Below are positions 712-35,932 of a stretch of DNA of 64,000 bases, one piece after another. The notes under the pieces were generated by a model. It was not told the DNA's origin, ran no database searches, and saw nothing but the letters and a program-made list of their open reading frames with translations. The translations under genes were made by a program, and so were the position numbers. The first letter of the stretch is position 1. Each line of letters begins with the position of its first letter. The stretch spans positions 6,679,765 through 6,743,764 of the forward strand of contig NC_057767.1 in the NCBI RefSeq assembly GCF_010389155.1, written 5' to 3'. This DNA comes from Erigeron canadensis. Taxonomy: Eukaryota; Streptophyta; Magnoliopsida; Asterales; Asteraceae.

Positions 712-1039
712 AGGTTCTAGTTAAAATAAAAGTATTAAAGTAAAACAAATAAAGTAAATAAATACTGTACCAATAGAGGTTCTAGTTAAAATAAAGTAAA
801 CTGTTTGTCTAAAGCTTAGATTTCTAAATCATAATAAAGATACAAATATCAATAGAGGTTCTAGTTAAAATAAAAATATTATAGTAAAACAAATAAAACA
901 ATAGATTTTTTTTTACCGAAAATCTATTTTCGTCGTGCATCATGGAAATCGTCATGCATGCTTGTGCTTTGTGAATCTTTATGGGGTCAAGATCTTGTCT
1001 TATGTTTTACTTTAATACTTAGTTTTACAATAACGAACT
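712..1039. mobile_element. hAT-like MITE, same family as the one at 21221, with internally repeated left end
   Basis: Its right part matches, in reverse orientation, the 205-bp MITE at 21221-21425: both share a 'AAGTATTAAAGTAAAA' terminal stretch and an inner block with 'GATCTTGACCC', 'GATTCAC' and 'GATGCAC'. Flanking CCAATAG copies (705-711 and 1040-1046) look like a 7- to 8-bp target duplication. The left terminal segment starting 'AGGTTCTAGTTAAAATAAA' occurs three times (712, near 775, near 855), so the element is longer than its relative through partial duplication of one end. It lies just upstream of the DUF295 gene start. Confidence 0.55.
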
Positions 1040-1046
1040 CCAATAG

Positions 1047-1824: not shown

Positions 1825-3525
1825 TTACTCGCTCAACCTATCCCTGTCATTCTTGTTCCCCGACAACATCGGAGGAATGCTTTGTTGATGCCTAAAAACA
1901 TTGTAGGGATCGATTTGTGTCTTTGCCCTCACAAGTCGATCGTAGTTTTTACAGAAGTACTTTTCACCCCATTCTCTGACCTTCTCAACTGCATCAGCAT
2001 CCTCTGACTCGACCTGAGTTTTTATCCAGTCCATCACCCCAAGATCAGTATCTATGTAGTTGATGTATGCAGCTCGTGGTTCCTGCGACACATATGGCGT
2101 CATTGAGCCATGAAAGCCTCGTATCCATGCTATATAGTCGCTCGTTTTGTCATTATCAGTTTCTTTCCAATCGACTAGATATTGAATAGTGAAAATATTG
2201 CCTTTCCTATGGGGAAATGGAATCGAGTCACTACTTATGGTTTCCATTGCGCCGCCATACGGGTCCAAAATCACAAATCCTTTTGGTTGCTTTTCAAGTA
2301 TGTCGAGTGCGGTGGTTAAGCCAAATCGTGGAATAGGTTTCCTAACAAAGTCTGATTTTGCCTTATAATACGATTTATCTTGTAAGAATCGGTCCTTCAA
2401 GTCTGAAACCATACTTTCATCTCCGAAACCCGAGAAGAAAAGAATCGACTCGATCCAACTCATCTCTTTGCAGTCACTTTCCACGACCTTTAGCTCAGGA
2501 AAAGTTTGGTTTACGATCAATAAAGCTTTTGTTTTTGGTCCCAAATAGAACCCTTTGAATGTAGCTGATATACCCGGTTTGTTTTTCCGCTCGGGCAAAC
2601 ATGCACCTACGAAAGATGATATATAGAAATCATCCGTCAATTTAGGTGCAACGTGTTGCCATTTGTTGACCAAATCAGTCACTTGTCCTTTCGTGCCTGG
2701 TCTAGACACGACAAAACAAGTGACTGTTTTTGGTACAATTGATAATTTAATTTTCCAAGCATACACAATTCCCCAAACCCCACCACCACCGCCTCGTATT
2801 GCCCAAAAAACATCCTCTCCCATCGCATCGCGGTCCAATAACTCACCGTCAGCTGTCACTAAAACTGCATCAACCACATTATCGGCCGCTAGTCCATATT
2901 TTCGTGATAATAACCCGAATCCACCGCCCGAAATGTGACCACCGACTCCGACGGTCGGGCACGACCCGGCCGAAAAACCGTGCACCGGACTCGCCTCTGC
3001 GACGGCATAGTATGTCTGACCAAGCGTTGCACCGGCTTCGACCCATGCGGTTCCCGAGTTCACATCCACCGACACACTATCCAATCTAGTCATATCAATC
3101 ACCACAAAAGGTCTTCCTTCCATACATACTGATGATGTCCCTTCATAGCTATGACCACCACACCTAACCCGAATTTCGAGCAAAGATTGTCTTGCACAAA
3201 CAACAGTGTTAGCCAATTGTTCTTTCGTCTCGGGAAACACGATAACAGCCGGTTTTGGCAACGACAGACTCGAAAATCTTAGATTTTGTATGGAAAAATT
3301 TAGAAGTTGGTAATAAACCGAAGAATCATTGTTTGAATTCGAATGGGTCGTAAAGTTACGGATACCAAACTTAGTTAAACAAGAAGTGAAAACATTTGCG
3401 GGTTCTTCTTGTTCTTGATTCTTAGCATGATTATCGTGTTCGTGTTCGTAAGAGAAAGAAGGTAAAGAAATTGACATAACGAAAAAGACTAAAATGGTGA
3501 TTTTTTGCAAAAGCGTACACCTCAT
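1825..3525 (-). CDS. Berberine-bridge-enzyme-like FAD-linked oxidoreductase, secreted
   Basis: Intact 566-aa ORF without introns, the usual structure for plant BBE-like genes. A hydrophobic N-terminus (residues 8-25, 'KITILVFFVMSISLPSFS') is a signal peptide, so the protein should enter the secretory pathway. The FAD_binding_4 domain follows: 'RCGGHSYEG' with His125 and 'GSCPTVGVGGHISGGG' with Cys189 are the two residues that bind FAD covalently in BBE enzymes; their 64-residue spacing is close to that of the poppy enzyme. 'GEDVFWAIRGGGGGVWGIV' (238-255) is the second flavin-contact block. The C-terminal BBE domain ends in 'YFCKNYDRLVRAKTQIDP' and 'FRHQQSIPP', both family hallmarks. Family members oxidise alkaloids, carbohydrates or monolignols; the substrate here cannot be told. 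A His/Asp/Glu-rich linker (residues 26-44) after the signal peptide is unusual. Start is the first Met, just before the signal peptide. Confidence 0.95.
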   Translation of the reverse strand: MRCTLLQKITILVFFVMSISLPSFSYEHEHDNHAKNQEQEEPANVFTSCLTKFGIRNFTTHSNSNNDSSVYYQLLNFSIQNLRFSSLSLPKPAVIVFPETKEQLANTVVCARQSLLEIRVRCGGHSYEGTSSVCMEGRPFVVIDMTRLDSVSVDVNSGTAWVEAGATLGQTYYAVAEASPVHGFSAGSCPTVGVGGHISGGGFGLLSRKYGLAADNVVDAVLVTADGELLDRDAMGEDVFWAIRGGGGGVWGIVYAWKIKLSIVPKTVTCFVVSRPGTKGQVTDLVNKWQHVAPKLTDDFYISSFVGACLPERKNKPGISATFKGFYLGPKTKALLIVNQTFPELKVVESDCKEMSWIESILFFSGFGDESMVSDLKDRFLQDKSYYKAKSDFVRKPIPRFGLTTALDILEKQPKGFVILDPYGGAMETISSDSIPFPHRKGNIFTIQYLVDWKETDNDKTSDYIAWIRGFHGSMTPYVSQEPRAAYINYIDTDLGVMDWIKTQVESEDADAVEKVREWGEKYFCKNYDRLVRAKTQIDPYNVFRHQQSIPPMLSGNKNDRDRLSE

Positions 3526-3572
3526 AAAAATTTGGACTTGTTACATGAAATTGAGTGGTGTTTGAAGGTTGA

Positions 3573-3578
3573 TTTATA
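3573..3578 (-). promoter_or_regulatory. Candidate TATA box of the FAD-oxidase gene
   Basis: Minus-strand TATAAA about 50 bases upstream of the ATG at 3525, which would leave a 5' UTR of roughly 20 bases. The spacing is plausible but short; there is no transcript evidence. Confidence 0.35.
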
Positions 3579-3702
3579 TGGTGAAATTAATGGTAATATT
3601 TTAAGAAGAATCATACTGATTGGAAATAAAAGACAAACAGAAGTAAGTAAAGAAGAAATTAGTGTTCGTGGCCGGCCATTGCCAATTTCTTATGATTCTT
3701 GA

Positions 3703-6700
3703 AAAACTTACGCTACTGCATGCAGATAACTGAGCTTTCAAAGATAATATTCAATGATTGAGTGGACTATTCATTTGGATAGATAGTAGAATTCTAGTGG
3801 TTTAATCAACTTTCAATACTACACCCAAATGCCATCACTGCAATATAAGCAGACATGGAAATAAGAAATTATATTACACTCGTTAATATGGTGAAACTCT
3901 AGTAGTAGAGCCCATAAATAAAGGTTAAAAGACAAAGGTTCAAAATTTGTAAGGAAAGTGGAGATCTTATATCGTGATCCCATGTGTGAAGATGGTGACC
4001 TACCGGGTATGATATCTATATGGTGTACGTTTTGGATATCAAAATTGGTACATGAGAGTATGAGACTAGAGGCTTCCCAACTATTTAACTTTTTTTTTTT
4101 TTAAACTTGATAAAGTTATACTAATGAAATACTTTTAAACCATAATCAATTCATATAATTCTAATCGATCAAATATTATCAAACACAAACAAACTTAATT
4201 AAAATCAAAGTTACAATATTTAGACTTTAAAAAATCTAAAATAGGATACTTTTAATGAGAAAAAAATAATAATATAAAACCTCATCACATTCAACATATG
4301 TTAATCTAATACTCATTATCTTATAACATTTGTAAGTTATGAAACATCGGGTGGAACCAGCGTGGAATCCGGTGGAACCTGAGCTATAGATAGATTTATT
4401 AATGTAATTTACTTTGAAAGATGATGTATTTTTTTTTATTGATTATAAAAAATAAATATATTTTAACCATAAAACTCATAAAAACAATAGTTGTGCAACT
4501 AAATGTTAAATGTAAACCAACAAAGTGCTAAAATATTTAAAAATTGATAAAAGAAAAAAAAAAGTATAAAAATCTTTTAAATTCACCAAAACATAACAAT
4601 CAGTTATTATCGTTATTTTACATATAGGAGATTTTGTTTCCAATCCTGATCACGCACTAATTAATGATTTGCACATCATGATTCATTATGTTTTTTTTTT
4701 TTTTGTCAAGTGAAACGTACGTCCTCTGTTTAGTTATCGATTTTTGAAAAGTTATTTAGATCCCAAGTGACACGCGCGAATGTATGATGATCGATGATTC
4801 ATGTGCAAATATATGTCTTGGAGGTAGATCCAAACAATTTGTAAACTTGAAAAGTAGTTTAATTCTTTTCGAAGATTACTATGTTGGAGGTGCGATGAGA
4901 TGCCGGCCAACCGCAAGCTTCCAAAGGTTGCCGTTTCTTTCTCTTTACTTTAATTTTACTATATATAAAACCTACAATCGTTATTAAATTTATGAATATA
5001 CAGTATCTCTACTACAGTATAGGTTCTTTCATTTTTCAACTTTAACTAAGTGATAACCTCAAACTACCCCTAACACTTATTTATGATACCTTTAAAAAAA
5101 ATCTCAACCACTCATTTTTTTCTTTTCTCACAAATCTCAACCACTTATTTTTCTCTCTCCAGCATAAATTATTTTATTGTTCTAATTCATTCAAAATCTT
5201 TTATCTCAAAAACAGTACATCGATAAATTATAAAAATTATATAGGTGCTTTTAAAATTTCATACTCTTTCATTACAGATGTCATTCAATATATACTTTCG
5301 ACGAAATTTTAAATCCGATGGCGGAGCCCGGACGGCTAAGGCATTTAGCTATCACACTCCATGACCTATCACCTTCTATGACCTATTACCCTCAGCATCT
5401 CACCTTCGCAACATGTGGTTATTTTGTCTCGTAATTAAGTGAATGTCATGACTCATGAGTAGCTCAATGGTAATCATGAATAAAATTAGTTTATCTTACA
5501 AAAGTAGCTAGAGTTAATCGATCTCTTTAGGGATTATTATATGTATGTAACTCTCTCATCATAACTAACTTTATATTAATATATGGGAATGTAGTTTTAC
5601 AGAAATTTAAAAGAAATAGATCGAAAGGCCGTTTTATGTGCCAACTATGATTAAGATTGATGTTAATGTAACATGCATGATTTTGACATTTACGGGGTAT
5701 TTGAGAACAAATTGATAAGTAATTACATACTTTTATAGGATTGTTTGATTAGACACTTTTTTTAATGTTAAGAGTATACACACGTAATGTTTAGATTTTG
5801 ATGTCATTGATAAGCAAGGTGATACATTCACATTAATTTATAATCATTAAAAGCCAAAGGTGTAATCGGCAAGTTTCAGCGGTTCCTTTCATCGACTAAG
5901 ATCGGTACTTCGGTTCCCTTGTACCATCTTCTCTGGCCAAAATTGGCAAGTAGCATTGGTTATATATATATCGGCTCTATTGTGCCGATGCTTGTAAACG
6001 TTGAGAGTGTGATATGTGACCATTTTTTTTCTATGTTGTGGTGACAATTCTTTCTTCGTTAGAAACCTAATTTATAAATTAGGGGTTTTCGATTTTTGAG
6101 ACTAATATTATGTTTTCTTGTCTCGTATTGTCGGAATCAAAGCCAGAACCGATGAGCCGATGTTCCTAACATACTAGACCCTTTTCTGGAGAGATCTCAA
6201 ACCCCTTTTTACATTTTCCGACGTAACTATGTGTTGTCGGTTTTGGGCTTTGCATCTTCTTGTTTGGCATTTTGCATGTCCTTATTTGGGGTTTCATTTC
6301 ATCGCCAGCCATGGTTGATATTCGCTTTTCCGGCGATCCTTTTTTGAGGTTTCTGGTTTGTTTCTGCTTACTTTTCTGGCTATCCGATCTCTTTTAAGTT
6401 TATGATTTACCGCTGCTGTTGATGGTTATTATCAAAATTAGGTATTGTTTTATCGTATCATTCTGAAAAATTATATATGAACAACTGTTTATAGAATTTT
6501 TATAAAACGAACATATGACATATTAGTTTAAAAGAAGATAGAATATCAATAAAGGGATAGTAAAATGTTTGCATTATTAATCTAACAACGTTTCTTTCTT
6601 TATGATGTCCAAAAAACTTGCTATCTTTTTTTTTTTTTTAAGGTTTTGTTAGATGAAACTTTAAAAGTTTCATTTAAAGTGCATGAAATAATTATAATTT

Positions 6701-19642: not shown

Positions 19643-22600
19643 ATGGATGATGGTGAGTATGAAGTGGTGATAATTGGTGCGGGTATTTGTGGATTGGCGA
19701 CTGCAGTTGCTCTTCATAGGAAAGGCATCAAAAGTGTTGTAATGGAGAAATCAGAAAGCCTTAGGAACGACACCGGGACGGCAATTGGAATATGGCAAAA
19801 TGGGTGGCGAGCTTTGGATCAGCTTGGCGTCGCCGACAGTCTTCGCTCCACTGTCATCCCTATTCACAGGTAACTCTCTCTCTATATATATATATATCTT
19901 TTTTTAAGAAAAAAATGTTGAGCTTATTTTTGAGGTCGCTCTTGGTTCACATATTTCAAATTGGAATTGAAATTTAATTTTCTGAAATTGAAACTTAATT
20001 GACCTTTTAATGTATTTGGTTATTTAAAGATGAAGAAATTTCATTTTGTACAAATGCAAATATTTTCTCGTCTATGAGATCTTCATTCTATTGGGAGGAG
20101 AAGGAATTTCTTTCCATCCTTGAATTATCAAAAATACAAAAAATTCTGTCAAATTTAATTCTTTCAAATTCTTTTTTTATTCTCTTCAATTACATTGTAT
20201 GAATTTTAAATTAAAGAACAATTTTATTAATTAATAATTGTGTTGTATTATATTTACTAGTTAGTACTTCATTTATATATTTTGTAGTACTTCCTTTTTT
20301 TAGAATAATAATGTCTTTCTTCTATTGATTTGTTGTTAAATATATTTACTCACTAACAATCTGATAATTGTCTCAAATTGAATAATGTTTTACTTAAGTG
20401 ACAAGATTACAATAATGTCTATAAATTTTGAAATACTCGGCTCATTTGAATCAGTTTTTGAAAAATTGTATTAAAGGTAAGTTGATAAGTGATAACTTAT
20501 TTTATTTTATATTTAAAAGTAAACATTTATTTATTTGAGACAACCTAAAATAAAATGGCAGATTTTGAAATGGATGAAATATTTAGCATAAAAAACAATA
20601 GTTAATATTTAGATAGTACCATTGACTAAGAAAAAAGTGTATATATAGACAACTTTGATTTGTGTTTTAAAAAACGACCAGAAGGAGGGTAACCCAACCA
20701 GTAACCTGACCACACTATCTGCGGCGATGTAGCCGTAGAAAGTCACACACCCTTTTATCCGTACACTGTTGACTATGACAATTGACAGACACTTTTGCCT
20801 TATTCGACTTTCTGCGGCGACATCACTGCGGAAAGTCGAATCAGAAAGTCGAATAAGACAAATGTGTCTGTCAACTGTCATAGTCAACAGTAAAAGTCTC
20901 TGTCGATGCCGCAGCGGATAGTTGCAAAAAGACAAAACCACACTGCAGATCAACAGGGTACTTTGTGTATATAACCGTGTTTTCAATTTCATTTTCAATG
21001 CAATTTCATTCGCTTTCGTTTTCAAAACATACCACAATTTCATCCGCTCTCGCTCTCTATCGTTTTCATTTTACTAAAATTTTTGATCTTTGGGTATGTA
21101 TCCATCCATACATTTCGGTTTCATTTTACAATACATATCCGTACTTATAATATAAATGTTTATATATAGTATAGAACTATTAGTAATATATATCCATACT
21201 ATCCATACTATTAGTAATATAGGGGTTGGGTATTATAAAACAAGTATTAAAGTAAAATAAATAAGACATGATCTTGACCCTTGGATCATAGTTAAATTGA
21301 TGCACGAAGATTCACGAAGCAATTGATGCACAATGATTTTCATGCTGCACGGTGATCTTCAGTAAAGAAAAACCTATTGTTTTATTTGTTTTACTTTAAT
21401 ACTTGTTTTATTTTACCTAAAACCTAGTAATATATGTCTATACTATTTTCTACCTTTATATATGTATCTTACGTAAACATATATATATATGAATATAGAT
21501 ATAGATATTATACTTATGTGTAATTATGTATATAGTTATTGTAGTAACTATCTATAATCCTTTATAAAAAGGATTGAGTTTAAGAAATTCAGCATAATTT
21601 TTGTTCCCAAAATATCCCCACTTTATTTCTAAAGTTTCAAACTTACCATTCCACACAAAAAAAACCCACACATCTTAGAAACACATATCCACACAAAGAA
21701 AAAACCCACCGGTATCTTTCTTTATTTTTCTATAGATGCCTCCGGCGCAGGAATCAGATCCCCACCGGTGTCTTTTTTGTTTGTTTTTCTTGAATGTTTC
21801 GTATGTGATCACCGTAAAGCTGCCGCAACACGCGGACACCGGGCTAGTGTATATAAATATGGATACCATCAATAGTTACTGAACTAGATGTTGACATGTT
21901 TACTTTAATTGTTTCAGATGGATAGTTTGGAGGATATTTGGGCAGACCCAGAAAACGTACGTATTGAAGTGTCGAATGATGAGTTTGAGACACCTGATGC
22001 AGACAGTGAATTTGACTACGAAGCTGGAGACTTGGAAACCGAGGAGGTGTTTGCTTCCGTCGAAGAATTGACGGAGAGGGCTCAAAGAACAGCACTGGAG
22101 TTGGGTTATGTTCTAGTCAGACAACAGTCGAACAAAAACTCGTTAAAGGTGGTCAATAAAGTGACACTAATATGTCACCTCGGTGGACCACGCGATAAAA
22201 GGTTAATTGGGCCACCCAAACAGTCCAACAAGATAAGGTGTCCCTTTACTCTGGAAGGCCGCCTAGGGTATGATGGTGGTTAGAGGGTCACTGTCAAGGA
22301 GTGGAAACACAATCATGATCCAGCTACAGTATGCATACGCGAGACGAATGACGGAAGAAGAAAGGAAATTTGTGGGAAACCAATCGGATCGCGGTATGTA
22401 CCTACGCCAGATCCTGGTAAACCTCAAAAATGAATTTCCAGGAAACCTGACTCGAAGAGGAGACATTACCAACAATCTGAAATCGAGACGGAGGTCGGGC
22501 CAAGCAGGGCATACTCCAATGAAGGTACAAACATCATATTAGTGATTATGTACTACGTTGTTGGAAGTGACTTATTTACTATATCTTGTTCACTTGTCGC

Positions 22601-25600
22601 AGGTTATGTTCTCATTACTGCAGGAGAAAAACTACTTTTACCAGTTTACTACAAATAGTAAAAATAGACGGTTGGAGAACCTCTTTTTCATGCATCCAAC
22701 ATCAATGACCCTATGGTGCGCATTTCCCTGGGTTATTGAAATAGACTCCACGTACAAAACCAACGTGTACAACATGTTGCTTGTTGAGATTGTTGGCGTG
22801 ACTTCAATGGGCAGGACCTTCAGCTTAGCATATGCTTTTATCGTAAACGAGCAGGAGGTAAATTATCAATAGGTGTTACAATCTCTCAAGTCCACCATTG
22901 TTGAAGGCTTTGCCGTTCGTGTCGTTCTAACTGACAGGGAGCTGGCTCTGATGAGAGCACTGAAGGTTATGCCGGAAGCGAAACACCTACTGTGTAGGTT
23001 CCACATATAGCAAAACATAACCAAACACTGCGAACCGGCATTGCGGTTGAAAGATATTGACATTGAAAGGCTTAACATCTGGTGGAAAAGAGTCTATCAA
23101 TCTCGGACTCATGACGAGTTTAAATCATACGAGAAAGAGTTAAAGCCTGGTAGAAGCTGTCCATGAAGTCGTAGGTGATCTTACGAGTTTCTTAGTTGAG
23201 CAACCTAAGGCCCAACGGAAACATTGGTTGTCAAAGATAAAGGACATGTTTAAGTCGGGTAATACACAAGTGAAAGACCCACCTGGGTTTCGGAAATCCA
23301 AGTCCAGTCGACCGAGGCCTGAAGAGGTGCCCGATCTGAACAAAAACCCACCTATGCAGCCCGCGAGACAAAGTGAGTACGCGCCCACCAAATGAGGGTT
23401 CGCGAACACACCTGATTTTTTGATGACCCACAGAGTGCGCAACACACTATGTACGAGCTGTCCCAATCCTGACATCTCCCCGATACACACAACTTGTTCA
23501 GGGAGCTTCAGGCCTCGGTCGACTGGACTTGAATTTCTGAAGCCTAGGTGGGTCTTTCACTTGTGTGTTACCCGACTTAAACATGTCCTTTATCTTTGAC
23601 AACCAATGTTTCCGTTGGGCCTTGGGTTGCTCAACCAAGAAACTCGTAAGATCACCTACGACTTCATGAACAGCTTCTACCTGGCTTTAACTCTTTCTCG
23701 TATGATTTAAACTCGTCATGAGTCCGAGATTAGTAGACTCTTTTCCACCAGACGTTAAGCCTTTCAATGTCAACATCTTTCAGCCGCAATGTCGGTTCGC
23801 AGTGTTTGGTTATGTTTTGCCATATGTGGAACCTACATAGTAGGTGTTTCGCTTCCGGCATAACAACCTTCAATGCTCTCATCAGGGCAGCTCCTTGTCA
23901 GTTAGAACGACACGAACGGAAAAGCCTTCAACAATGGTGGACTTGAGAGATTTTAACACCCATTGATAATTCACCTCTTACTCGTTTACGATAAAAGCAT
24001 ATGCTAAGCTGAAGGTCCTGCCTGTTGAAGTCACACCGACAATCTCAACAAGTGGCATGTTGTACATGTTGGTTTTGTACGTCGAGTCTATTTCAATAAC
24101 TCATGGAAATGCGCGCCATAAGGTCATTGATGTTGGATGCATGAAAAAGAGGTTCTCCAACCGTCTATTTTTACTATTTGTAGTAAACTGGTAAAAGTAG
24201 TTTTTCTCCTGCAGTAGTGAGAACATAACATGCGACAGGTGAACAAGATATAGTAAATAAGTCACTTCCAACAACGTAGTACATAATCACTAATATGATG
24301 TTTGTACCTGCATTGGAGTATGCCCTGCTTGGCCCGACCTTCGTCTCGATTTCAGATTGTTGGTAATGTCTCCTCTTCAAGTCAAGTTTCCTGAAAATTC
24401 ATTTTTGAGGTTTACCAGGATCTGGCGTAAGTACATACCGCGATCCGATTGGTTTCCCACAAATTCCTTTTCTTCTTCCGTCATCCGTATCGCGTATGCA
24501 TACCCCTGCAGATCGATAGCTGAATCATGATTGTGTTTCCACCCCTTGACAGTGACCCTCCAACCACCATCATACCCTAGGCGGTCTTCCAGAGTAAAGG
24601 GACACCCTATCTTGTTGGACCGTTTGGATGGCCCAATTAACCTTTTATCGCGTGGTCCACCATGGTGACATATTAGTGTCATTTTATTGACCACCTTTAA
24701 CGAGTTTTTGTTCAACTGTTGTCTGACTAGAACGTAACCCAACTCCAGTGTTGTTCTTTGAACCCACTCCATCAATTCTTCGACGGAAGCGAACACCTCC
24801 TCGGTTTCCAAGTCTCCAGCTTCGCAGTCAAATTCACCGTCTACATCAGGTATCTCAAACTCATCATCTGGCACTACAATACGTACGTGTTATGGGTCTG
24901 CCCAAATATCCTCCAAACTATCCATCTGAAACAATTTCAAGTAAACAAGTCAACATCTAGTTCAGTGACTATTGATGATCCTTATTTATATATATAGTTA
25001 CTACAATAACTATATACATAATTACACATAAGTATAAAATCTATATCTATATTCATAATATATATATATATATATGTTTACACAAGATACATATATAAAG
25101 GTAAAAAAGAGAATGGACATATATTACTAATAGTATGGATATATATATTACTAATAGTTCTATACTATATATAAACATTTCTATTATAAGGACGGATATT
25201 TATTGTAAAATGAAACCGAAATGTATGGATGGATACGTACCTGAAGATCAAAATTTTCAGTAAAATGAAAGGGATATGAAAATGATAGAGAGTGAGAACG
25301 AATTAAATTGCGGTGTGTTTTGAAAACGAAAGCGAATGAAATTGCATTGAAAATGAAATCGAAAACGCAATTATATACACAAAGTACACTGTTGATCTGC
25401 AGTTTGGTTTTGTCTTTTTGCGACTATCTGCGGCGACATCGATATCGACAGAGACTTTTACTGTTGACTATGACAGTTGACAGACACTTTTCTTATTCGA
25501 CTTTCCGCGGCGACACGCGGAAAGTAGAATAAGAAAAAAGTGTATGTCAACCGTCATAGTCAACATTGTACGGATAAAAGGGTACGTGACTTTCCGCGGC

Positions 25601-27591
25601 AACATCGTCGGGGATAATGTGGTTGGGTTACCCTCCTTCTGGTCGTGTTACCCACCACCTTTTTATATAAATATTCCTTATGGAAAATAGTGAGAAATAA
25701 TTTTAGAAGTGATAAGGAGTACTTGTTTAATTAAACTACTTTTTATGTTGATACGTCAATAATTTTTTATTGTGCGGGTATGTGTACATTTTACGAGTCT
25801 TATACGGATATTAATATCCCAGAAGATATAAATTTAATAGAGGACAATGGCCTACTTAATGGAGTTTTACTATAAAATCAATTGGTGATAAAAGGAGTAG
25901 TTCATTAGTTTACATGTTGAATTTGTGTTTCACAATCATTAATGTGTCTTAACGAGCTATCCAACTAATAAAACTATGTGTTTTAACATATTTTTTTTTT
26001 GTCTATGTACAGGGAACGAATTGTATCATTGGATGACGGGAAAGAGCAACTAATCTCCATGTAAGTTGCACTATGTTAAAATTCTTGGGTTAAAAAACAT
26101 CAAAAGAAGCATAGTTTTTCTTGGTTTTCATTGTCCCTTTTTCTTAATAAAACAAAATTAGAAGTAACAATATATATGTTTTGTAGTTTCAAACGGGTAA
26201 ATGGTTATGGGTCTTTTAAATTTAGATGTAGGTAGGTAGCCTTACAGTATGCCATTTCTAAATTTTTCCCCTCAGCTGATACAGTTAAAGAACTTGACAA
26301 TGATGAAACTAATCTGGATTTTAGTAAAAAAAAAATAAGGGATGGTCAAGATCAAATTTGATTTATTCACACATTTGATCAGTAGAAATTTTAATGAATC
26401 ATATGTAAATGAACCTCCACCATGACAGACAAGGAAAAATATAAGTTGTTATTATAGATTATTATTGTATAGTACTCATAATGTGTTTGTCTAATGATGA
26501 ACAATAGCAATGGTGAATTTCGAGCCTTAAGAAGGAAGGATATTATAGACACCCTTTTTGATGCTCTTCCTCCAGCAACTGTAAAGTTTGGCTGCCAACT
26601 TGAATCTATAAATACTGACACCGACACTGCTAAATCGGTTCTTAGGTTTCTTGATGGAAGCTCTATTATAGCCAAGGTATTAACTTTTTTCATAAAAGAA
26701 ATACAAGTATGCTTAGACGATTCTTGTTCACCATGTTTCCACTTATAGGTTGTAATTGGTTGTGATGGTGGCAATTCAGTTGTTGCTAATTATCTTAACC
26801 TCAAGCCTACTAAGATATTCTCTTTATGTGGAGTTAGAGGTTTCACAAACTATCCAAATGGTCATTCATTTGACCATGAGTTTGGTCTTTTCAGAAAAGA
26901 TAACATTCTTGTAGGGAGGATTCCAATGGATGATAATATGGTCTATTGGTTTTGTGCGCATCCTTATCTTCCTGAAGGTTGTTTATTATGTTTATGTAGA
27001 GTTTGATTCAATTATTTCGTTGTTCTTCTTTTCGTAGCTGATTTTATCTATATTTTATGATATACAGATGAAAGAACTTGGGAAAGTCCCGAGTTGATTA
27101 GAAGATCAACCTTGGAAGTGCTAAGCGCCCATCCGCAAGAAATTGAAGAGATGATAAAAAATGCAGACATAAACTCATTCTCTTTGGCACGCTTAAGGTA
27201 TCGCACTCCATGGGACTTGTTAACAGGGACATTTTATAAAGGAGCAGTTGTGGTTGCTGGTGATGCTTTACATGTCATGGGTCCATTTTTGGGCCAGGGT
27301 GGTTCAGCAGGGTTAGAAGATTCAGTTGTGTTGGCTAGACACATAACTCAAAAGGGCTTGAAGCAAGTAGGAAATGAGAGGAAGATAATGGTTGAGGGGC
27401 TTGGGGAAGCGTTTAATATGTATGCAAAACAACGGCGGATGAGAGTTTTACGATTGTCATTAGAAACTTATCTTACCGGGATGCTACTTGGAGCTACTTC
27501 GCGCCTAAAGAAGGTTATGTATTTTATGGTGTTGTCTTTTCTGTTTCCGATCAAAAATGGTCATGTGGATTATGATTGTGGTAGTCTTTGA
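19643..27591 (+). CDS. FAD-dependent monooxygenase, MO1/CTF2 type, 5 exons, 398 aa
   Basis: Exons 19643-19869, 26013-26060, 26508-26676, 26749-26977 and 27068-27591 join in frame with GT/AG borders to 1,197 bases. The product is a group A flavoprotein monooxygenase (FAD_binding_3): 'VVIIGAGICGLATAVALHRK' holds the N-terminal GxGxxG that binds the ADP of FAD; 'VIGCDGGNS' is the DG motif; 'GDALHVMGPFLGQGGSAGLE' is the GD motif contacting the FAD ribose. The end 'HVDYDCGSL' resembles plant MO1-like proteins. These soluble enzymes use NAD(P)H and oxygen to hydroxylate small molecules; the substrate is unknown. The ATG at 19643 is preferred over an in-frame one at 19598 because the Rossmann strand then begins near residue 7, as in relatives. 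Intron 1 is 6,143 bp, mostly a giant MULE palindrome. All exons are intact. Confidence 0.92.
20768..20890. repeat. ~123-bp palindrome inside the MULE terminal repeat
   Basis: 'TGTTGACTATGACAATTGAC' at the start returns as 'GTCAACTGTCATAGTCAACA' at the end, with TTATTCGACTTTC / GAAAGTCGAATAA inside. The same palindrome exists at about 25453-25567 in the right arm. A terminal repeat that is itself a hairpin is a foldback-style MULE end. Confidence 0.75.
21221..21425. mobile_element. hAT-like MITE, 205 bp, inserted in the left MULE arm only
   Basis: Flanked by AGTAATAT at 21213-21220 and 21426-21433; the right MULE arm has one AGTAATAT at the same place and no insertion. The ends are imperfect inverted repeats (AGGGGTTGGGTATTAT / AGGTTTTAGGTAAAAT) continuing into 'AAGTATTAAAGTAAAA'. 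An 8-bp duplication points to the hAT superfamily. A relative lies at 712-1039. Confidence 0.88.
21551..21848 (+). mobile_element. Non-autonomous Helitron, 298 bp, inserted in the left MULE arm only
   Basis: Begins TCTATAATCC right after an A and ends with a GC-rich hairpin region 'GCCGCAACACGCGGACACCG' followed by GGCTAGT. The right MULE arm reads straight through the site without it, which fixes both ends. The 5'-TC and 3'-CTAGT ends with no target duplication are the Helitron signature. Confidence 0.8.
21918..23165 (+). pseudogene. MULE transposase relic, left copy
   Basis: ATG at 21918 (MDSLEDIWADPENVRIEVSN) opens an acidic N-terminal part, then a WRKY/GCM1-fold DNA-binding block ('KIRCPFTLEGRLGYDGG'). 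TAG at 22281 stands where the right copy has TGG. Further on, in changing frames, come the MULE domain signatures 'IDSTYKTNVYNMLL' with the first catalytic Asp, 'GRTFSLAYAFIVNEQE', 'VVLTDRELALMRAL' with the second Asp, and 'KHLLCRFHI' of the zinc-binding insertion. The region that would carry the third catalytic residue is missing. Several stops make it non-functional. Confidence 0.85.
23325..23505. other. 181-bp loop of the MULE palindrome
   Basis: Unpaired sequence between the two arms. Read on the plus strand it continues the transposase-like proline-rich reading ('PDLNKNPPMQPARQSEYAPT') and then stops, so it is probably MULE 3' coding sequence kept at the junction where the duplication formed. 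Confidence 0.75.
23506..25645 (-). mobile_element. Right arm of the giant MULE inverted duplication
   Basis: Inverted copy of 20675-23324, without the MITE and Helitron. It ends 'GGTTACCCTCCTTCTGGTCG' at 25645; a further GTTACCCACC may be the original element terminus. The arm differs from the left one by scattered substitutions and small indels but keeps the alignment throughout. Confidence 0.9.
23540..24925 (-). pseudogene. MULE transposase relic, right copy (inverted)
   Basis: Same gene as at 21918, on the minus strand from an ATG at 24925. It has a TAA about 12 codons in, but from 24874 to 24377 a 165-codon frame is open, covering the acidic N-terminus and the DNA-binding block through 'GYDGGWRVTVKGWKHNHDSA', which the left copy interrupts. 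The catalytic block (minus strand about 24150-23800) is frameshifted. The lesions differ from the left copy, so the arms decayed independently after duplication. Confidence 0.82.
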
Positions 27592-27714: not shown

Positions 27715-28103
27715 TGTTAGTATAGTATATAATTGTAATTAGGTTGGCTCGTTGGCCCTATTGTATATAGCCCATCATAGTACACAAATGTAATTATATA
27801 TTTACACCTAATGTAACATTGGATTTCATTGATTCTACATGGTATCAGAAATTTAATAAATCCTGGACCTTTCTTTCTTATCTCATCAATCTAATTTTAG
27901 GGTTCTTGGTTCAGCCGACACCCTTTATTTTCTTTTTCTTCTTATATGTTGGTTTGTCTTTTCAATGATTAGAAAGCACACCAATATATTATTCGTTGCA
28001 TCTATCACGAATTAGTCTTTGTCTTCTTGCTTTACAGAAGATTGTTTTCTTGCTTTTCTTTTAATTATTCTCTTATATGTACACATAAGTATATCTTACA
28101 ACC

Positions 28104-28889
28104 ATGACAACGGGTTCATCAACACCTCCTGTCGCTCCACTTCACAAAGCATATAGTATCACTACTATCAAATCGCAAATCCCTCTTACCCTTGATCTCA
28201 ACCATCTCAACTATGATATATGGACCGACCTTTTCGAAACCCATTGTATCGCATTCGATGTGATTGATCACATCGACGACACATATGATGCTACAACTAC
28301 CAATCCAGACAACAAACCACCAACCAAAGCCGAGTGGACCAAACTCGATTATATTGTCCAAAACTGGATTTATAATACTATAACATCGGATGTCCTCGCC
28401 AACGTCCATGCTAGAAAGGCCACCGCTCGTGCAACTTGGCTAGCTATTGAAACCCTTTTTCGAACAAACAAAGAAGCCAAGTCCCTTCAACTCGATAATG
28501 ATCTCCGTAACATTACTCTTGGCAATATGTCTATCAACGACTATTGCACAAAAATAAAGACCATGGCTGACCTTCTTAAAAACATCGGCACTCCTGTTCC
28601 GAATAACAATCTCGTGGCATACACTCTCAATCGTTTACCCTAAAAATGGAATGGGGTAACCCGCACTCTTCGTCTACGTGAAAAACTACCAACATGGATG
28701 GAAACTCGAGCGCTATTGCTTGGCGAGGAATCCAAGTTGGAAGAAAAACGTCTTGCAGATCCCATCTCCACTGACAACTCATCCTCTCCTAATGTTTTGC
28801 TCACCGGATCTAATGATCATCACGCGGGAATGCAGCGGACGGGAGAAGAAACGATCGTCGTAATGGTGGGCGCTGAAATAATCAGCTAG
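28104..28889 (+). pseudogene. Copia Gag (UBN2/RVT-gag type) with internal stop
   Basis: ATG at 28104 gives 'IPLTLDLNHLNYDIWTDLFE', 'WIYNTITSDVLANVHARKAT' and 'ARATWLAIETLFRTNKEAKS', the usual Copia Gag blocks. TAA follows 'LNRLP' at 28641; the same frame continues 'KWNGVTRTLRLREKLPTW' to a stop at 28887, so the TAA is a simple nonsense change. A CCHC zinc knuckle, expected near the end, is not visible. Confidence 0.85.
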
Positions 28890-28906
28890 CCCAACAATAC
28901 GGGTGG

Positions 28907-29329
28907 GTGTTTATTCCACCACCACGACCTAACACAAGACAACATATGTCTCGACCTCCCACTGGAAACAACACCACAGAAACTTATTTTCATGCAAATT
29001 GGAATAAGCCTAGCATTCTTGGCCGTCCAATTAATTACCCACCTGCCTATTATCCAGCAGGTCCAAATCAGCAAAGCCCACAAGCTTATACAGCATTTCC
29101 AGCAGGCCCAACAGCTTATGCAGCTCCTCCAACAGTCCCAACAGCTTATGCAGCTCATCCAACAGGCCCAATAGCTTATACAACTTATCCAGCAGGCCCA
29201 TCAGCCACTCCAGCAAACCTGTCAGGCCCATCAGCAACGTTAGCAGGCCCATCAGGCAACTTACAGCCCACAAATGGGCCTTTATTTGGATCTGGTCTGC
29301 CCACTAACCACACTGCCTTATTTATTTAA
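28907..29329 (+). repeat. Pro/Ala/Gly/Tyr-rich repeated spacer between Copia Gag and protease
   Basis: An open frame with repeats of the type TAYAAxPTGP / AGPxAY (about 29075-29245). At DNA level this is a short tandem array of CCAACAGCTTATGCAGCT-type units. Variable-length low-complexity spacers of this kind are common at the Gag end of Copia polyproteins. Confidence 0.7.
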
Positions 29330-29354
29330 TACCATGACTTTGTAGGACCCGGGA

Positions 29355-30560
29355 CAATCAGGTTGGATCATGGATAGCGGTGCTATTGATCATGTTCATT
29401 CGGATGCAAGTATACTTAAATCCATTTCTAATAACCTTGATACTCATTCTATTTTTGTTGGTGATGGTTCATTAACTCCTGTTGTGACTACTGGGCACAC
29501 CACCTTACCAAACCCATTTCGCACGCTTCATTTAAATAATGTCCTTATTACACCAAAAATTATTAAAAACCTCATCTCTGTACGTAAATTTACACATGAT
29601 AACCGTTCAATTGAATTTGATCCCTTTGGTTTTACTGTGAAGGACTATCGCACCCGTCAGCCTCTGATCCGATATGACAGTACTGGACTTCTCTACCCAG
29701 TTACATAGACCCCCTTTCAAGTTTTCACTGCTACCACTCCATCCATTTGGCACCAACGTCTTGGACACCCTGGTGACCAAGCCCTTCACCATTTAATTTC
29801 TCGTAATTTTATTTCATGTAATAAAGTAAAGTCTAACGTGCTTTGTCAAGCATGTCAACTTAGCAAATACGTCAAACTTCCGTTTCATCTTTCTAATTCA
29901 GTTGTTAGTTCGCCTTTTGATATTATACACTCTGATATCTGGACATCTCTGATATTATACACTTCGTCATAAGTCTGATGTATTTAAAAGAATTTGCACT
30001 TTATAGCGTATGTTAACAATCAATTTAAGTGTAAGATTAAATCGTTTCAATGTGATAATGGTGGTGAATACAATAATAAAGAGTTTCATGATTTCTTTGC
30101 CACCCATTGAATCCGTTTTCGTTTCTCATGCCCACATACCTCACAACAAAACGGTAAATCTGAACGCATGCTTCGTACCATCAATAATACCATTCGTAAC
30201 CTCTTGTTTCATGCACACCTTCCTCCTACATATTGGGTGGAAGCTCTTCACATGTCCACCCATCTCCTAAATATTCTCCCCTCATCCACTATCCACAATG
30301 ACACCCCCCATTTCCGCGTCTTCAAACAACATCCAACATACATGCATCTCCGTGTGTTCGGATGTCTATGCTTCCCTCACATCCTGAGCTCTCACAAGCT
30401 CGCCCCCCGATCCTCACCATGCATGTTTCTCGGATACCCATCTGATCATCGTGGTTTCTGTTGCCTTGATCTTTCTACTCGAAAGATCATCATCTCTCGT
30501 CATTTTGTCTTTGATGAGACTATTCTTCCCTTCGGCTCTGTTACCCCCACTCACTCACCT
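29355..30560 (+). pseudogene. Copia protease and integrase, partly deleted
   Basis: 'WIMDSGAIDHVHSD' (near 29367) is the aspartic protease active site (DSGA). It continues through 'LHLNNVLITPKIIKNLISVR' to 'YDSTGLLYPVT' and a TAG at 29706. Next, 'WHQRLGHPGDQALHHLIS' and 'CQACQLSKYVKLPF' form the integrase HHCC finger. 'IIHSDIWTS' carries the first catalytic Asp, but then about 50 codons are missing before 'FQCDNGGEYNN' (second Asp) and 'QQNGKSERMLRTINN' (Glu). An in-frame TGA lies after 'FFATH'. It is non-functional. Confidence 0.85.
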
Positions 30561-30859
30561 TCATACGAGTTCCTTGACTCTTTGTCTCCTTTATTTCGTC
30601 CGGAGTTCCAGCCACCACCACTAACGATGTCCTCGGATTCAGACAACCCCATCTCACCCATATCACCCACGTCATTTCCTACACCCAGCACCCAAAACAC
30701 TTTACCCATGACCCCCACACCACCCCCACCCGCCCCGCCTAGTCATCCTATGTTGACCTGTGGTAAATGCGGGATTACTAAACCCATAGATCGCCTCAAT
30801 CTTCACACCACTTCCGCTACACCGGTGCCTCGGTATATCTACAGACTATTAAGGACCCT

Positions 30860-31416
30860 CACTGGCTTAAAGCCATGAATGAGGAATATCAGGCTCTTAT
30901 TAAAAATGGTACTTGGGTTCTGGTTCCTCGACCACCGGGAACTAATGTGGTTCGTTGTATGTGGCTCTTTAAGCAAAAATTTAATGCTGACGGCTCCCTC
31001 GCACGTTACAAAGCTAGATTAGTCGCTAATGGTAACAGTCAGCAGCTTGGCATTGATTGTGACGAAACATTTAGTCCTGTTGTTAAGCCGGCCACCATCC
31101 GCACTGTCCCAAGTCTTGCAGTTTCTCGTCAGTGGCCCATTTATCAGTTAGATGTGAAAAATGCCTTTCTTCATGGTGATTACAAGAGAATGTTTACATG
31201 CATCAACCACCTGGATATCGTGATTCTAGATTTCCTGACCATGTTTGCCACCTGCAACGATCTTTATATGGTCTTAAACAGGCCCCGCGTGCTTGGTACC
31301 AACGTTTTGCTGATTTTATGCAGCAACATGGTTTTCAACGTAGCAGATCTGACTCATCCTTGTTTGTCTATCACCATGGGTCCTTAATTGTCGACCTTCT
31401 TTTATACGTTGATGAT
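30860..31416 (+). pseudogene. Copia reverse transcriptase, N-terminal part
   Basis: '[20 protein letters not shown]', '[20 protein letters not shown]', 'KARLVANG', '[14 protein letters not shown]' and '[13 protein letters not shown]' are canonical Copia RT blocks. A one-base frameshift near 31190 separates them from 'MHQPPGYRD', '[16 protein letters not shown]' and 'LLLYVDD'. The frame ends inside the catalytic YVDD motif because of the nested insertion at 31417. Confidence 0.9.
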
Positions 31417-31516
31417 TGATATGTCGTATTTTATACCCATTTCCCACGGTTTAGTTAATTGTTTTTATATGGTTTAAGAGTCGTTTTCATATATATTTGG
31501 TGCGTTAATGGTATTT

Positions 31517-32012
31517 CACAGGGCCGTCTCGTTGACTTTAGAGGCCTTGTTCTAATCTTATAAGGTAGGCCCTCATATTGTTATATAAATATTAACCATA
31601 TTACTTATACAGAGTATCTATATATTTTTGTTCTTAATCTTCCATTTTCATTGAAGATTTATTGTACAAATTATATCAAACTAAAAGTGTTCTTCTTGAC
31701 TATAAAAAAATATTAACATTTTAACTTAACAGTAACACCAACTTAAAAAATCTCAAAGTAAACATAAGCTAAGATAATTCAATTTGGAGAATACACAGAT
31801 ACAAATCTTAAATGATATAATATGTGTACGTTGGGCTGATTTGTGAAACTTGGAATTAAAATGCGAAAACATGAATCATAGAAAGGTGTATACATAAATC
31901 AGTATTAATACTTGGTTGATATTACATACTCCGTAGTATATAAAAGTTGGGCCCAATATATTTTGTAGGCCTTGTTCCACTGAACCGGTTGAACATGCTC
32001 TCCTCCGGCCTC
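31517..32012. mobile_element. hAT non-autonomous element, 496 bp, nested in the LTR-type element
   Basis: TGGTATTT target copies lie at 31509-31516 and 32013-32020. Removing one copy and the insert joins 'GCGTTAATGGTATTT' to 'GTTAGTGTTTCAGGG', matching the uninterrupted second unit near 33290. The left end has CAGGGCCG and the right end in reverse has GAGGCCGG, imperfect hAT-like inverted ends. It is the third level of nesting here. Confidence 0.82.
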
Positions 32013-32157
32013 TGGTATTTGTTAGTGTTTCAGGGTGTTAACATGTATTTAAGCGTTAATTTGGAGAAAACGATGTTTCTAGAGTAAAATGAGTGCTTAC
32101 GGACGTTTTACGAGGCACGAAACTGAAGATTCAAAGCTGGTCAACGAAAGTCAACGC

Positions 32158-32330
32158 ACACTGCGGCGCAGCATGAGCATGCGTCGCAGTTTCACGTTTC
32201 AAGGATTAAAATGCTTCGCAGTCATGTGAGACTGCGACGCAGTGGTACCAAACTCAAGTCAGATAAAGTCAAAGAAAGTCAAAGCAAGTCAAAGGAAGAC
32301 TGCGACGCAGTCTGGAACTGCGGCGTTCAT
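32158..32330. repeat. CG-rich palindrome cluster ACTGCGNCGCAGT, unit 1
   Basis: Palindromes of the form (C/G)ACTGCGNCGCAGT and close variants occur four to five times (about 32160, 32182, 32235, 32302, 32320), separated by AT-rich DNA and AGTCAAAG repeats. They are the most CpG-dense short words nearby. Their place upstream of the leader suggests U3 promoter sequence; that role is inferred. Confidence 0.7.
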
Positions 32331-33469
32331 AAAACCCTAACTTTTACTTCCAGCCGATTTCTAGAGCTTTGAAGCAGATTTTCGTCAGATTTCTTTTCTT
32401 CGAAGAACTTCATTACGATTGGATTATTTCTGTTACTCGTTTTCATTCCTTTGTATTCGGTAACGATGAATTCTCTTCATTAATTTGATTTGTATTTGTA
32501 TTTTCATATGAGTGACTAATCGCCTTTTCATCCATCTTGATGGAGTAAAACAATATGTAAGGATTGCATACATTTTAGAATTCAAAGTTGATTACATTTA
32601 ACGTTATATCGAAATCTCAGTGTATTTATTCTTTATAATTTATCTTGAATTGATTGGTGATTTATATGAGTCTTAAATGGTACAAATGATTAGATCTATG
32701 ATGGGTACAGTAGATAATTACTCAAAGATAATAGGAATAAATGTGTTGACAGTTGGGTACAATCGATAGGTATAATTGTTAATTTAATAACCAAAACCAT
32801 TGTTGAATTAGAAAAGTTATAAAAGATGTCTTGGGGTACCGGTCTTTATAACGGAACTAGTTTATACAAGAGAATCAAAGTATTTCACTAACTTGACGGG
32901 TACGGGGTTGGTGCTTAATTTGAGTCTCGGTTATTTAGTCAAGTAAATTGGGTTTGAACTTCATTTCATATGCAATCCGAACATGTTGTTGAGCGAAATC
33001 AAGATGGGTGACCTTTAAATTATTGTTTAATACAACAACTCCTCTTTTCGATTAATCCTGAGGGATTACTAACTCTTTTACTAACTATTTGCAACGTGAC
33101 AATTCGTCCACAAAAGACCCTTTTTATTTGAATCATTTCATTTGAACAATTGCTTTAAGAAGTCCTTGTGTTCGACCTCAGATTTACCGAATTTACTATA
33201 CTGCATGTGATGTGACCAATTTATACTCATCGTCCACATCATTATTGGCCATATATTTAAGTGTTTTAAGTCGATTTTATGTGCATTTGGCGCGTTTACG
33301 GTGTTTGTTAGTGTTTTCAGGCTCTAAACAGGTTACACGTTCATTTGGTACTTTTTCGGAAGATTTCTTGGCCTAGAAGTTGATTTGTGTTATCGAGAGT
33401 TGATTTAAATGGAAAAGATGATGAAGCTCGGCATGTATTCGAGATCGAAAGAAGATTGTTCGACATAAG

Positions 33470-33745
33470 CATTGACTGCGCTGCAATGGGTATGTTACAT
33501 GGCCACTGCGCCGCAGCCATTATCCACGGAGCTCAAAGTGAATTAACCCCATTGCGTCGCAGTGGGGGTTGCAAGGGTTGACTGCGCCGCAGTCATTGGA
33601 TGAAGAATTCTGGACGTGGATTCGGACTGTGCCGCAGTGGAGGTATCCATAGCCACTGCGTCGTAGTCGTAGGAAGTCAAAGTCAAACCCAGGAGACTGT
33701 GCCGCAGTGGGGAGCATCACTTGCCCACTGCGCCGCAGTGGATGC
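33470..33745. repeat. CG-rich palindrome cluster CACTGCGCCGCAGTG, unit 2
   Basis: Seven to eight near-copies of CACTGCGCCGCAGTG / GACTGTGCCGCAGTGG stand at intervals of about 30-50 bases. The spacing and the varied central base show the palindrome itself is what is kept, not a tandem unit. Confidence 0.75.
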
Positions 33746-34927
33746 ACGGGAGCTGAAGCCCTTGGACGATTTTTGCATCAGATTTGGAGAAGTAAAAATA
33801 AGAAACACAACCGTAATTCCCAACTTATCTAAAATCTTTCTAGGAGCTGTTCTATAAGGGTTCTTCAATCTCCAAGCAAGTTTTCTTAGGCAGATTCATT
33901 GAAGATTCACGAGCACTCATCTAGATCGTATCTACTTTTATTGTCTTGCAATTTCAATTTCTCAACGATTGGTACATCATGTTTCTCTTTAATTTTAATC
34001 ATTATTTTGAATTGATCATGAGTGGCTAAACAATTTATCATCCACCTTGATGAAACTAGACGAATGATGTGATTGCAATATTTTTAATTCAAAGGGTTTA
34101 TTTAATTATCATTGTTCCGTGATCTTGATGATTTAATTCTTTTCAATAATTATTATGATATTGGTTGCATATAAATTCTTCGTTGGTGGTACCAGTTGAA
34201 TGTATATGTGATTTTAAAATGGTTGTTTGTCTATGAGCAATTATTACTAGTTCATGGCATGGTAGTGAATATCATTTTAAGAGAAGTGTAATTTTGTCAA
34301 CGTAATTTATTATGGTTGGTGGTACCACGTTATTTTTACATAGGGCCAATTGATAATTTGATAGTCAGTAAAACTAATTGTTGGAAGAATTATCTTGGCA
34401 TTGGTGGTACCGGTCTGGGTAATTCAACTAGCAACTTAGGTGATTTGGTAATTTGTTCACGGTTGGTAGTACTACGTGAGCACCTTAATCTTTTCACGAC
34501 TATCCTTAAACTCAAATGAATTTTTTCTTAATTAAATACAATCACATTTGAAGTAAAGTGAATTCAAGGTGGATGACTTTTATTAATATTGTTTGAAGTT
34601 CTTCTTTACTTTTATGCAATTTGGCTTTCAAATTTATTGTCAAAAATATTTGCGAAGTAATACCCATTTTTCCAAACCATTTCATCAAACAACTAGTCAA
34701 TCCAATCCCTGAGAACGAACACGGTCTTACCTTTTAACTATATTACAAAAAGTTGGGTCCACTCCCCGTAAGTGCGTAGTAGTGAGTTTTTAGGAGATTC
34801 TGGTTTATAAATTTAAAGCTCGATTTGGCACATCAGCATGCGATCAGGTTCACTGCCTGTTAGTGTGTAGTAGTCAGTCGCAAGGTGATTCGTGTTTTAT
34901 AAATTTAAGACTAGATTTCACATATCA

Positions 34928-35787
34928 ATGACATCATACTCACCACATCATCAATGTCTTTGTTGCACACCATTATTGGCATGCTTGGTCGCGAGTTCTC
35001 TATGACAGACTTGGGCACTCTTAACCATTTTCTCGGGATCTCTGCCACTCGCAGCTCTAGTGGTTTGTTTTTATCTCAGAAGAAGTACGCTACGGACATC
35101 CTAAAGCGTGCTAATATGTTAAGCTGCAACCCTTGCCGAACGCTAGCTGACACACAGTCGAAGTTGGACACCACGGGCCCTCCGGTTGCAGACCCCACAC
35201 TATACAGGAGTCTTGCAGGTGCTCTTCAGTATCGTACATTCACTCGACCCGACATCTCTTATGCTGTACAGCAGATTCATGTTTCATCCACAGATGGTCT
35301 TGTTGCATATTCTGATGCTAATTGGGGCGGTTGGCCGACTACACGCCGCTCCACCTCCGGATATTGTGTATTTCTTGGCGATAATCTTCTCTCGTGGTCT
35401 TCAAAGCGCCAACATGTTATCTCTCGATCCAGTGCAGAAGCTGAATATTGGGGTGTGGCTAATGCAGTAGCAGAAACATGTTGGCTACGTAATCTTCTAT
35501 TGGAACTACACACATCTCCTACTAAGGCCACCCTTGTCTATTGTGATAACATCAGCTCAGTGTACCTGACATCGAACCCAGTTCAACATCAGCGGACTAA
35601 GCACATTGAGATTGACAATCATTTTGTTTGTGATCAGGTTGCCTTGGGTAATATTCGGGTTCTACATATCCCCTCTCGGTCACAGTATGCAGACATCTTC
35701 ATGAAAGGGCTTCCTACTTCACTTTTTACAGATTTTCGATCCAGTTTGAACGTTCGGATTTCTCCTCCCGATAAAACTGCGGGGGGA
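34928..35787 (+). pseudogene. Copia reverse transcriptase C-terminal part and RNase H
   Basis: After the nested element, RT continues with 'LGREFSMTDLGTLNHFLGIS' and 'FLSQKKYATDILKRANM'. RNase H follows: 'VAYSDANWGGWPTTRRSTSG' (first Asp), 'SRSSAEAEYWGVANAVAETC' (Glu), 'LVYCDNISSVYLTSNPVQHQ' (Asp) and 'RTKHIEIDNHFV'. The 279-codon frame is open from 34954 to a TAG at 35791 in the LTR. A segment around 'IHVSSTDGLVAYSDANW' is shorter than in relatives, so there is a deletion between RT and RNase H. Confidence 0.9.
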
Positions 35788-35932
35788 TGTTAGTAAAGTA
35801 TATAATTGTGATTAGCTTGGCTCATTGGCCCTATTGTACGTAAATAGCCCATCATAGCCTACAAATGTAATTATATATTTGCACCTAATGTAACATTGGA
35901 TTTCGTTGAGAAAAATATTATTCAACACATGA

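What the first reader, a model, noticed from the sequence alone, without database searches (positions are those of the whole stretch)
20675..25645. Natural Mu-killer-like locus: giant MULE inverted duplication in an intron of an expressed-type gene
Two ~2.14-kb arms of a MULE, including the transposase gene from its ATG to beyond the second catalytic Asp, face each other around a 181-bp loop inside intron 1 of an intact monooxygenase gene. The pre-mRNA would fold into a hairpin several kb long covering terminal repeat and transposase. In maize, Mu killer is an inverted duplication of part of MuDR whose hairpin RNA silences all MuDR copies. This locus has the same architecture but is driven, if at all, by a host gene promoter. 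It could be a trans-acting silencer of a MULE family. The duplication is seen directly; the silencing role is inference.
Basis: partly seen in the sequence, partly recalled or inferred. Interest (0 to 1): 0.88.

Follow-up and report, generated by a model that had tools for sequence, protein, structure and literature searches.

The report
Mu-killer-like transposon hairpin inside weed gene
In horseweed, half of a jumping gene lies as two mirror-image copies in the first intron of an intact enzyme gene, one public version of that enzyme starts inside one of the copies, and RNA read across both would fold into a hairpin about 2,000 base pairs long that is predicted to feed small RNAs, much like maize's Mu killer.

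Summary
Two arms (2,141 bp each once a MITE and a Helitron in the left arm are set aside; 93.3% identical) face each other around a 181-bp loop in intron 1 of an intact five-exon monooxygenase-1-like gene of Erigeron canadensis. New here: (1) the public protein "monooxygenase 1-like isoform X2" is reproduced 335/335 by splicing a first exon at 25544-25581, inside the right terminal repeat, to host exon 2, so a transcript leaving the right arm into the gene is annotated. (2) Both arms share deletions absent from every relative that could be checked, and are sisters in trees (100/100): one inverted duplication of one internally deleted MULE. (3) The junction was found nowhere else among scored hits. 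(4) The duplication looks older than all 13 sampled copies of the abundant subfamily. (5) The same family holds a second, independent, younger inverted duplication on C2 (2,776-bp arms, 97%). Hairpin RNA, siRNAs and trans-silencing are predicted, not shown. Mu killer's architecture is matched (two copies of one terminal repeat, inverted transposase half, transcript running into a flanking gene); descent from MuDR was not shown and silencing is untestable here. The timing speaks against control of today's copies.

The parts
20674..23324 (+). Left arm: MULE copy reading inward from its terminal repeat (transposase sense on +), outer 13 bases missing
   Evidence: end by comparison
23325..23505 (+). 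Loop, 181 bp; MULE sequence continuing the left arm
   Evidence: 73-86% to family copies in the same order as the left arm
23506..25646 (-). Right arm: same MULE part reading inward on the - strand
25647..25659 (-). Probable outer 13 bases of the right terminal repeat, absent on the left
   Evidence: by eye against L033 and L034
23145..23150 (+). Point in left arm where relatives carry 525-630 bp more
   Evidence: 16 of 16 loci with matches on both sides
23680..23685 (-). Same deletion point in the right arm
   Evidence: spanning 181-bp query matched end to end only by the two arms among 40 scored hits
21222..21424 (.). MITE inserted in left arm after the duplication; 10-bp TSD TAGTAATATA on both sides; empty site in right arm
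21551..21847 (+). Helitron-like insertion (ends CTAG, between A and T), after the duplication; empty site in right arm
   Evidence: Helitron rules recalled
20968..20974 (+). TATATAA motif facing inward in left arm (candidate transposase promoter)
   Evidence: function not tested
25371..25377 (-). Same TATATAA motif in right arm, facing inward
25544..25581 (+). First coding exon of public isoform X2, inside the right terminal repeat, donor GTACGT
   Evidence: splice to host exons 2-5 gives P0001, 335/335 residues
19643..19869 (+). Host exon 1 (ATG; carries the GAGICG dinucleotide-binding motif)
19870..26012 (+). Host intron 1, 6,143 bp, holding the inverted duplication
26013..26060 (+). Host exon 2
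26508..26676 (+). Host exon 3
26749..26977 (+). Host exon 4
27068..27591 (+). Host exon 5 with stop

Best explanation
An internally deleted Mutator-like element lies as a 2.14-kb inverted duplication in intron 1 of an intact monooxygenase-1-like gene, a public isoform of that gene takes its first coding exon from the right terminal repeat, and RNA crossing both arms would fold into a stem of about 2 kb that is predicted to be diced into small RNAs, likely acting first on this locus and only weakly on today's relatives. Shown: the anatomy, the shared deletions, the single origin of the arms, the later MITE and Helitron hits, the isoform's exon. Inferred: that the isoform record reflects real RNA; that RNA leaves the right arm antisense to the transposase, either from a promoter inside the right arm or from the left arm's inward promoter through the whole hairpin; that Dicer-like enzymes process the stem; that siRNAs methylate the arms and could touch relatives through short identical stretches. 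The isoform lacks exon 1 with its GAGICG motif, so it is predicted to bind FAD poorly or not at all.
For: Arms and fold. Isoform: (Pfam FAD_binding_3 covers profile 1-318 in the full model, and only 114-318 in the isoform). Single event: arms are sisters 100/100 and share the 525-630-bp gap (16 of 16 checkable relatives lack the gap) and a 161-171-bp gap (10 of 10). Junction: only self covers the 301-bp junction query among 40 of 97 candidates scored. Targets: 21-mers shared with 16 of 20 relatives at 157-292 each. Parallel: in Mu killer plants that silence, antisense transcripts start inside the locus, cross TIRA and end in the flanking gene amy4 (PMC3440606, passages).
Against: No small-RNA or RNA reads could be examined. 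The isoform record's own evidence was not seen, its 5' UTR is unknown, and no full-length 398-aa record was among the 120 of 858 listed hits. Only 501 of about 2,134 right-arm 21-mers are perfectly paired, and perfect duplex runs of 21 or more number 29, the longest 95. The C-to-T excess at CG and CHG in the arms has about the same shape as in relatives, so it does not single this locus out as a small-RNA source. Changes private to each arm (28 left, 36 right) give no sign of upkeep of the pairing.
Confidence: 0.5

Rival explanations
1. Decayed fossil with a cis effect only: the right terminal repeat serves as an accidental first exon or promoter for the host gene, no RNA spans both arms, and no small RNAs act in trans.
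For: Arms have drifted to 93.3% identity and the left arm took a MITE and a Helitron; the relatives spread later; the isoform exon needs only the right end. Outward-reading promoters near Mu ends are on record (Barkan and Martienssen 1991, seen only as a reference title).
Against: A stem with 2,007 predicted arm-to-arm pairs in a gene that is annotated as transcribed would be an unusual intron to escape Dicer-like enzymes; this is inference.
Confidence: 0.33
2. Active trans-acting silencer of today's MULE family: siRNAs from this hairpin hold the present full-length copies silent.
For: Family copies are many (135 places for one 24-mer with up to 3 mismatches, control 0) and share 157-292 21-mers with the arms in 16 of 20 fetched relatives.
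Against: The duplication is older than 13 of 13 sampled copies of the abundant subfamily, so it did not stop them; divergence is 10-13%. The younger C2 inverted duplication is a better match to another subfamily (671, 895 and 667 shared 21-mers with L039, L038, L041).
Confidence: 0.12
3. A palindromic element that moved here as a unit, or two separate insertions in opposite orientation.
For: Both outer ends are the same terminal repeat, which a transposase might use.
Against: Left end truncated by 13 bases and no target-site duplication seen (by eye); junction not found elsewhere among scored hits; the right copy has no inner half; shared private deletions.
Confidence: 0.03
4. Assembly artefact.
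For: Long inverted repeats are hard to assemble (general knowledge).
Against: Arms differ at 141 of 2,100 aligned columns, and only the left one carries the MITE and Helitron.
Confidence: 0.02

Closest known systems
Mu killer (Muk) of maize
   Same: Two terminal repeats, both from the transposase-side end; inverted duplication of the outer half of the transposase gene; internal deletion; transcripts crossing a terminal repeat into a flanking gene (Muk features from passages of PMC3440606).
   Different: Derived here from a FAR1-type MULE with a full MULE domain match, not shown to be of MuDR descent; lies inside an intron, not between genes; arms 2.14 kb against about 1.3 kb; arms 93% identical, so old; silencing not shown.
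Outward-reading promoters at Mu ends (hcf106::Mu1 type)
   Same: RNA of a host gene begins at the end of a Mutator-type element.
   Different: Known to me from a reference title and recall; here the end belongs to a giant inverted duplication and supplies a coding exon.
Transposon and gene hairpins that give miRNA-like small RNAs in maize
   Same: Foldback RNA from Mutator elements and introns linked to small RNAs and CHH methylation (PMC10760457, passages).
   Different: Those are local stems (median 25 nt for one class in that paper); this is a stem of about 2 kb from an inverted duplication.

Membership tests
Mu killer-type locus | Both outer ends derive from the same (transposase-side) terminal repeat | tested here: met
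   the left end lacks 13 bases
Mu killer-type locus | Partial inverted duplication of the transposase gene with the element's inner half gone | tested here: met
Mu killer-type locus | Transcripts of the locus cross a terminal repeat into a flanking gene | tested here: inconclusive
   Isoform P0001 starts in the right terminal repeat and splices to host exon 2; a protein record, no reads seen
Mu killer-type locus | Dominant, heritable silencing of the intact element in trans through small RNAs | not testable with these tools
   No small-RNA, methylation or genetic data held; timing speaks against it for the abundant subfamily
Mu killer-type locus | Descent from MuDR itself | not tested
   No comparison with MuDR was run. 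The relatives' transposase matches Pfam MULE (3e-26) and, below its cut-off, FAR1; placing it apart from MuDR is recalled knowledge
Mutator-like element (MULE) | MULE transposase domain | tested here: met
   Left-arm piece 1.2e-10, relative L024 3e-26
Mutator-like element (MULE) | Target-site duplication of about 9 bp at the ends | tested here: not met
   None seen by eye at 20674 / 25659; the left end is truncated, so this does not speak against MULE origin of the arms

The most novel reading that the evidence does not exclude
A MULE family that keeps giving birth to its own killers: two subfamilies each produced an independent inverted duplication of the transposase in one genome, and the older one, in a transcribed host gene, silenced its own lineage so well that no other copy more than 92% alike over 500 bp or more was found, while lineages 10-13% diverged escaped the siRNAs and expanded.
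Probability: 0.12. Interest if true: 0.88.

Novelty: new variant of a known kind. Interest (0 to 1): 0.63.

Why it matters
Mu killer arose in maize stocks and is the textbook case of a transposon silenced by its own inverted duplicate; whether such loci arise and persist in wild plants is open. This window gives a fully sequenced, dated (relative to relatives) and annotated candidate in a weed, with a transcript already annotated at one end, plus a second, younger one of the same family. Together they make it testable how often inverted duplications arise in a MULE family, how long they stay potent, and whether diverged lineages escape. The host gene has no close paralogue (next match 36% identity), so an effect on its isoforms would be visible.

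Tried and rejected
Rejected: mobile palindromic element, two insertions, assembly artefact (reasons under rivals). Considered that the arms lack introns as a cDNA would: rejected by my reading of the sequence, since an intron-like stretch stays in the arms and the large missing stretch is coding in relatives. Tested whether C-to-T changes mark the locus as specially methylated: the arms show CG 13/107 and 12/109, CHG 9/83 and 8/84, CHH 12/319 and 15/322, A>G or T>C 10/647 and 11/654; relatives show the same tilt at lower levels, so no. Rfam gave 0 matches in the window. A plasmid search gave no match and was beside the point. An empty site could not be sought: no close paralogue and no related plant genome held. 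Literature: (open-access library only; listings) showed no other described MULE inverted duplication of this kind apart from Mu killer; subscription papers were not searchable. One search placed exon 1 wrongly; one search corrected it. Tree rows dropped: of 20 relatives, six were left out (L031 and L035 aligned too briefly, L030, L032, L033, L034 gave no hit at the limit used); of seven more, three (L037, L042, L043) were left out for short or missing matches.

Full report
Place and host. The window is G000:C7:6679765-6743764 of a 426-Mb genome in 356 contigs. The host gene model has five exons, 398 codons and GT-AG introns and matches Pfam FAD_binding_3, PF01494. Its best database relative is P0001, "monooxygenase 1-like isoform X2", Erigeron canadensis; splicing window pieces reproduces that record residue for residue, which is my ground for the species name. 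The next match to exon 5 in this genome is 36% identical; 7 of 7 candidates were scored.

Anatomy. Left arm 20674-23324, loop 23325-23505, right arm 23506-25646. With the MITE (21222-21424, 10-bp TSD) and the Helitron-like insert (21551-21847, ends CTAG) set aside, both arms are 2,141 bp; 141 of 2,100 gap-free columns differ and 82 columns have gaps. The right arm has the empty site of both inserts, so they came after the duplication. The right end probably extends to 25659; the left end lacks those 13 bases, and I saw no target-site duplication by eye. RNAfold of 20674-25659 gives 2,007 arm-to-arm pairs and -3,627 kcal/mol; one equally long control stretch gives -1,210.

What was duplicated. 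Relatives share 8.2-8.4 kb (for example L019 866-9219 and L022 901-9108 in outer-to-inner orientation) with a MULE transposase (PF10551, 3e-26 in L024; FAR1 below its cut-off). Against them both arms lack 525-630 bp at one point (16 of 16 loci with matches on both sides carry it: L017-L025, L028, L036, L038-L042) and 161-171 bp at another (10 of 10: L017, L018, L036-L043). A 181-bp query across the first point matched end to end only in the two arms; the other 38 scored hits ended by base 105 or began at base 86 (40 of 135 candidates scored). In trees of the inner block the arms are sisters with 100/100 support. So one internally deleted MULE was duplicated in inverted orientation once. The junction query (301 bp) was covered in full only by itself (40 of 97 candidates scored).

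Transcription. P0001 begins MSTVIVNIVRIKG and goes on as host exons 2-5. These 13 residues come from 25544-25581, inside the right terminal repeat, with a GTACGT donor. The record is a protein in UniRef and nr; its RNA evidence and 5' UTR were not seen, and no full-length 398-residue record was among the 120 listed of 858 hits. The isoform lacks exon 1 with GAGICG and keeps profile positions 114-318 of FAD_binding_3 against 1-318 in the full model. Direction: + strand, antisense to the right arm's transposase. In Mu killer plants that silence MuDR, antisense transcripts start inside the locus, pass TIRA and end in amy4, while plants that fail to silence have sense read-through from amy4 (PMC3440606, passages). 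Inward TATATAA motifs lie at 20968 (+) and 25377 (-); no function was tested.

Age and targets. Left-right distance is 0.064. In the 20-row tree the arms' end branches are 0.027 and 0.034; the 13 copies of the abundant clade have 0.003-0.02; other rows reach 0.031 (L040) and 0.027 (L041), so not every relative is younger. Pairwise distances in the 13-copy clade ran 0.013-0.048 in a printout of every sixth value, and arm-to-family distances 0.10-0.13. Shared 21-mers: 157-292 in 16 of 20 relatives, 0-19 in L030, L032, L033, L034; a control stretch shared 0 in 19 and 1 in 1. Non-self hits over 500 bp or more reached at most 92% and 90%, 40 candidates scored in each; short pieces reach 96%. Thus siRNAs, if made, could touch relatives, but the hairpin did not prevent the spread of the abundant clade.

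A second case. One search showed opposite-strand hits on C2. L047 (C2:12561500-12569000) holds arms 899-3674 and 3828-6603, 97.2% identical, loop 153 bp. Its arms fall in another subfamily (L038, L039, L041) as sisters, 97/96; the loop lies on the transposase N-terminal side, the reverse of this window. It shares 895, 671 and 667 21-mers with L038, L039 and L041. Of 28 loci scanned (L017-L043 and L047, many partial), only L047 has separate inverted arms of 200 bp or more. A 24-mer found 135 places (control 0); among the 100 listed, opposite-strand neighbours within 10 kb occur at these two loci only; a second 24-mer found 71 places, all listed, with the same two (by eye). If 133 loci were uniform, neighbours within 1.5 kb in either orientation would be expected 0.06 times.

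Judgement. Architecture like Mu killer: yes. RNA out of the right arm: likely. Hairpin small RNAs: plausible, untested. Control of today's family: unlikely. Most telling is that one MULE family made two independent inverted duplications in one genome.

Noticed in passing
L047:899-6603 (G000:C2:12562398-12568102): Second, independent and younger inverted duplication of the same MULE family, 2,776-bp arms at 97.2% and a 153-bp loop; the right flank encodes a stretch resembling the family's second, opposite-strand gene (by eye).
   Followed up: partly
L024:4190-5425 (-) and similar frames in L018-L023: The relatives' frame downstream of the transposase carries a DGDGSCGFRA motif that recalls OTU proteases; Pfam gave no match. 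A further opposite-strand gene looks like a plant transposase-type protein, also without Pfam match.
   Followed up: partly
window 28089-35793: Pieces of a Copia-like retrotransposon (gag-, integrase- and reverse-transcriptase-like frames; naming recalled) begin about 500 bp downstream of the host gene.
   Followed up: no
window 1825-3540 (-): 571-codon open frame of a berberine-bridge-enzyme-like protein (FAD_binding_4 and BBE).
   Followed up: no
window 51572-52600 (+): 342-codon open frame matching Plant_tran and DDE_Tnp_4, a PIF/Harbinger-type transposase by recall.
   Followed up: no
window 20765-20891 and 25462-25565: Each terminal repeat holds a palindrome of its own (arms 57 and 30 bp), seen in several relatives too; possibly a transposase-binding or foldback structure.
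   Followed up: no
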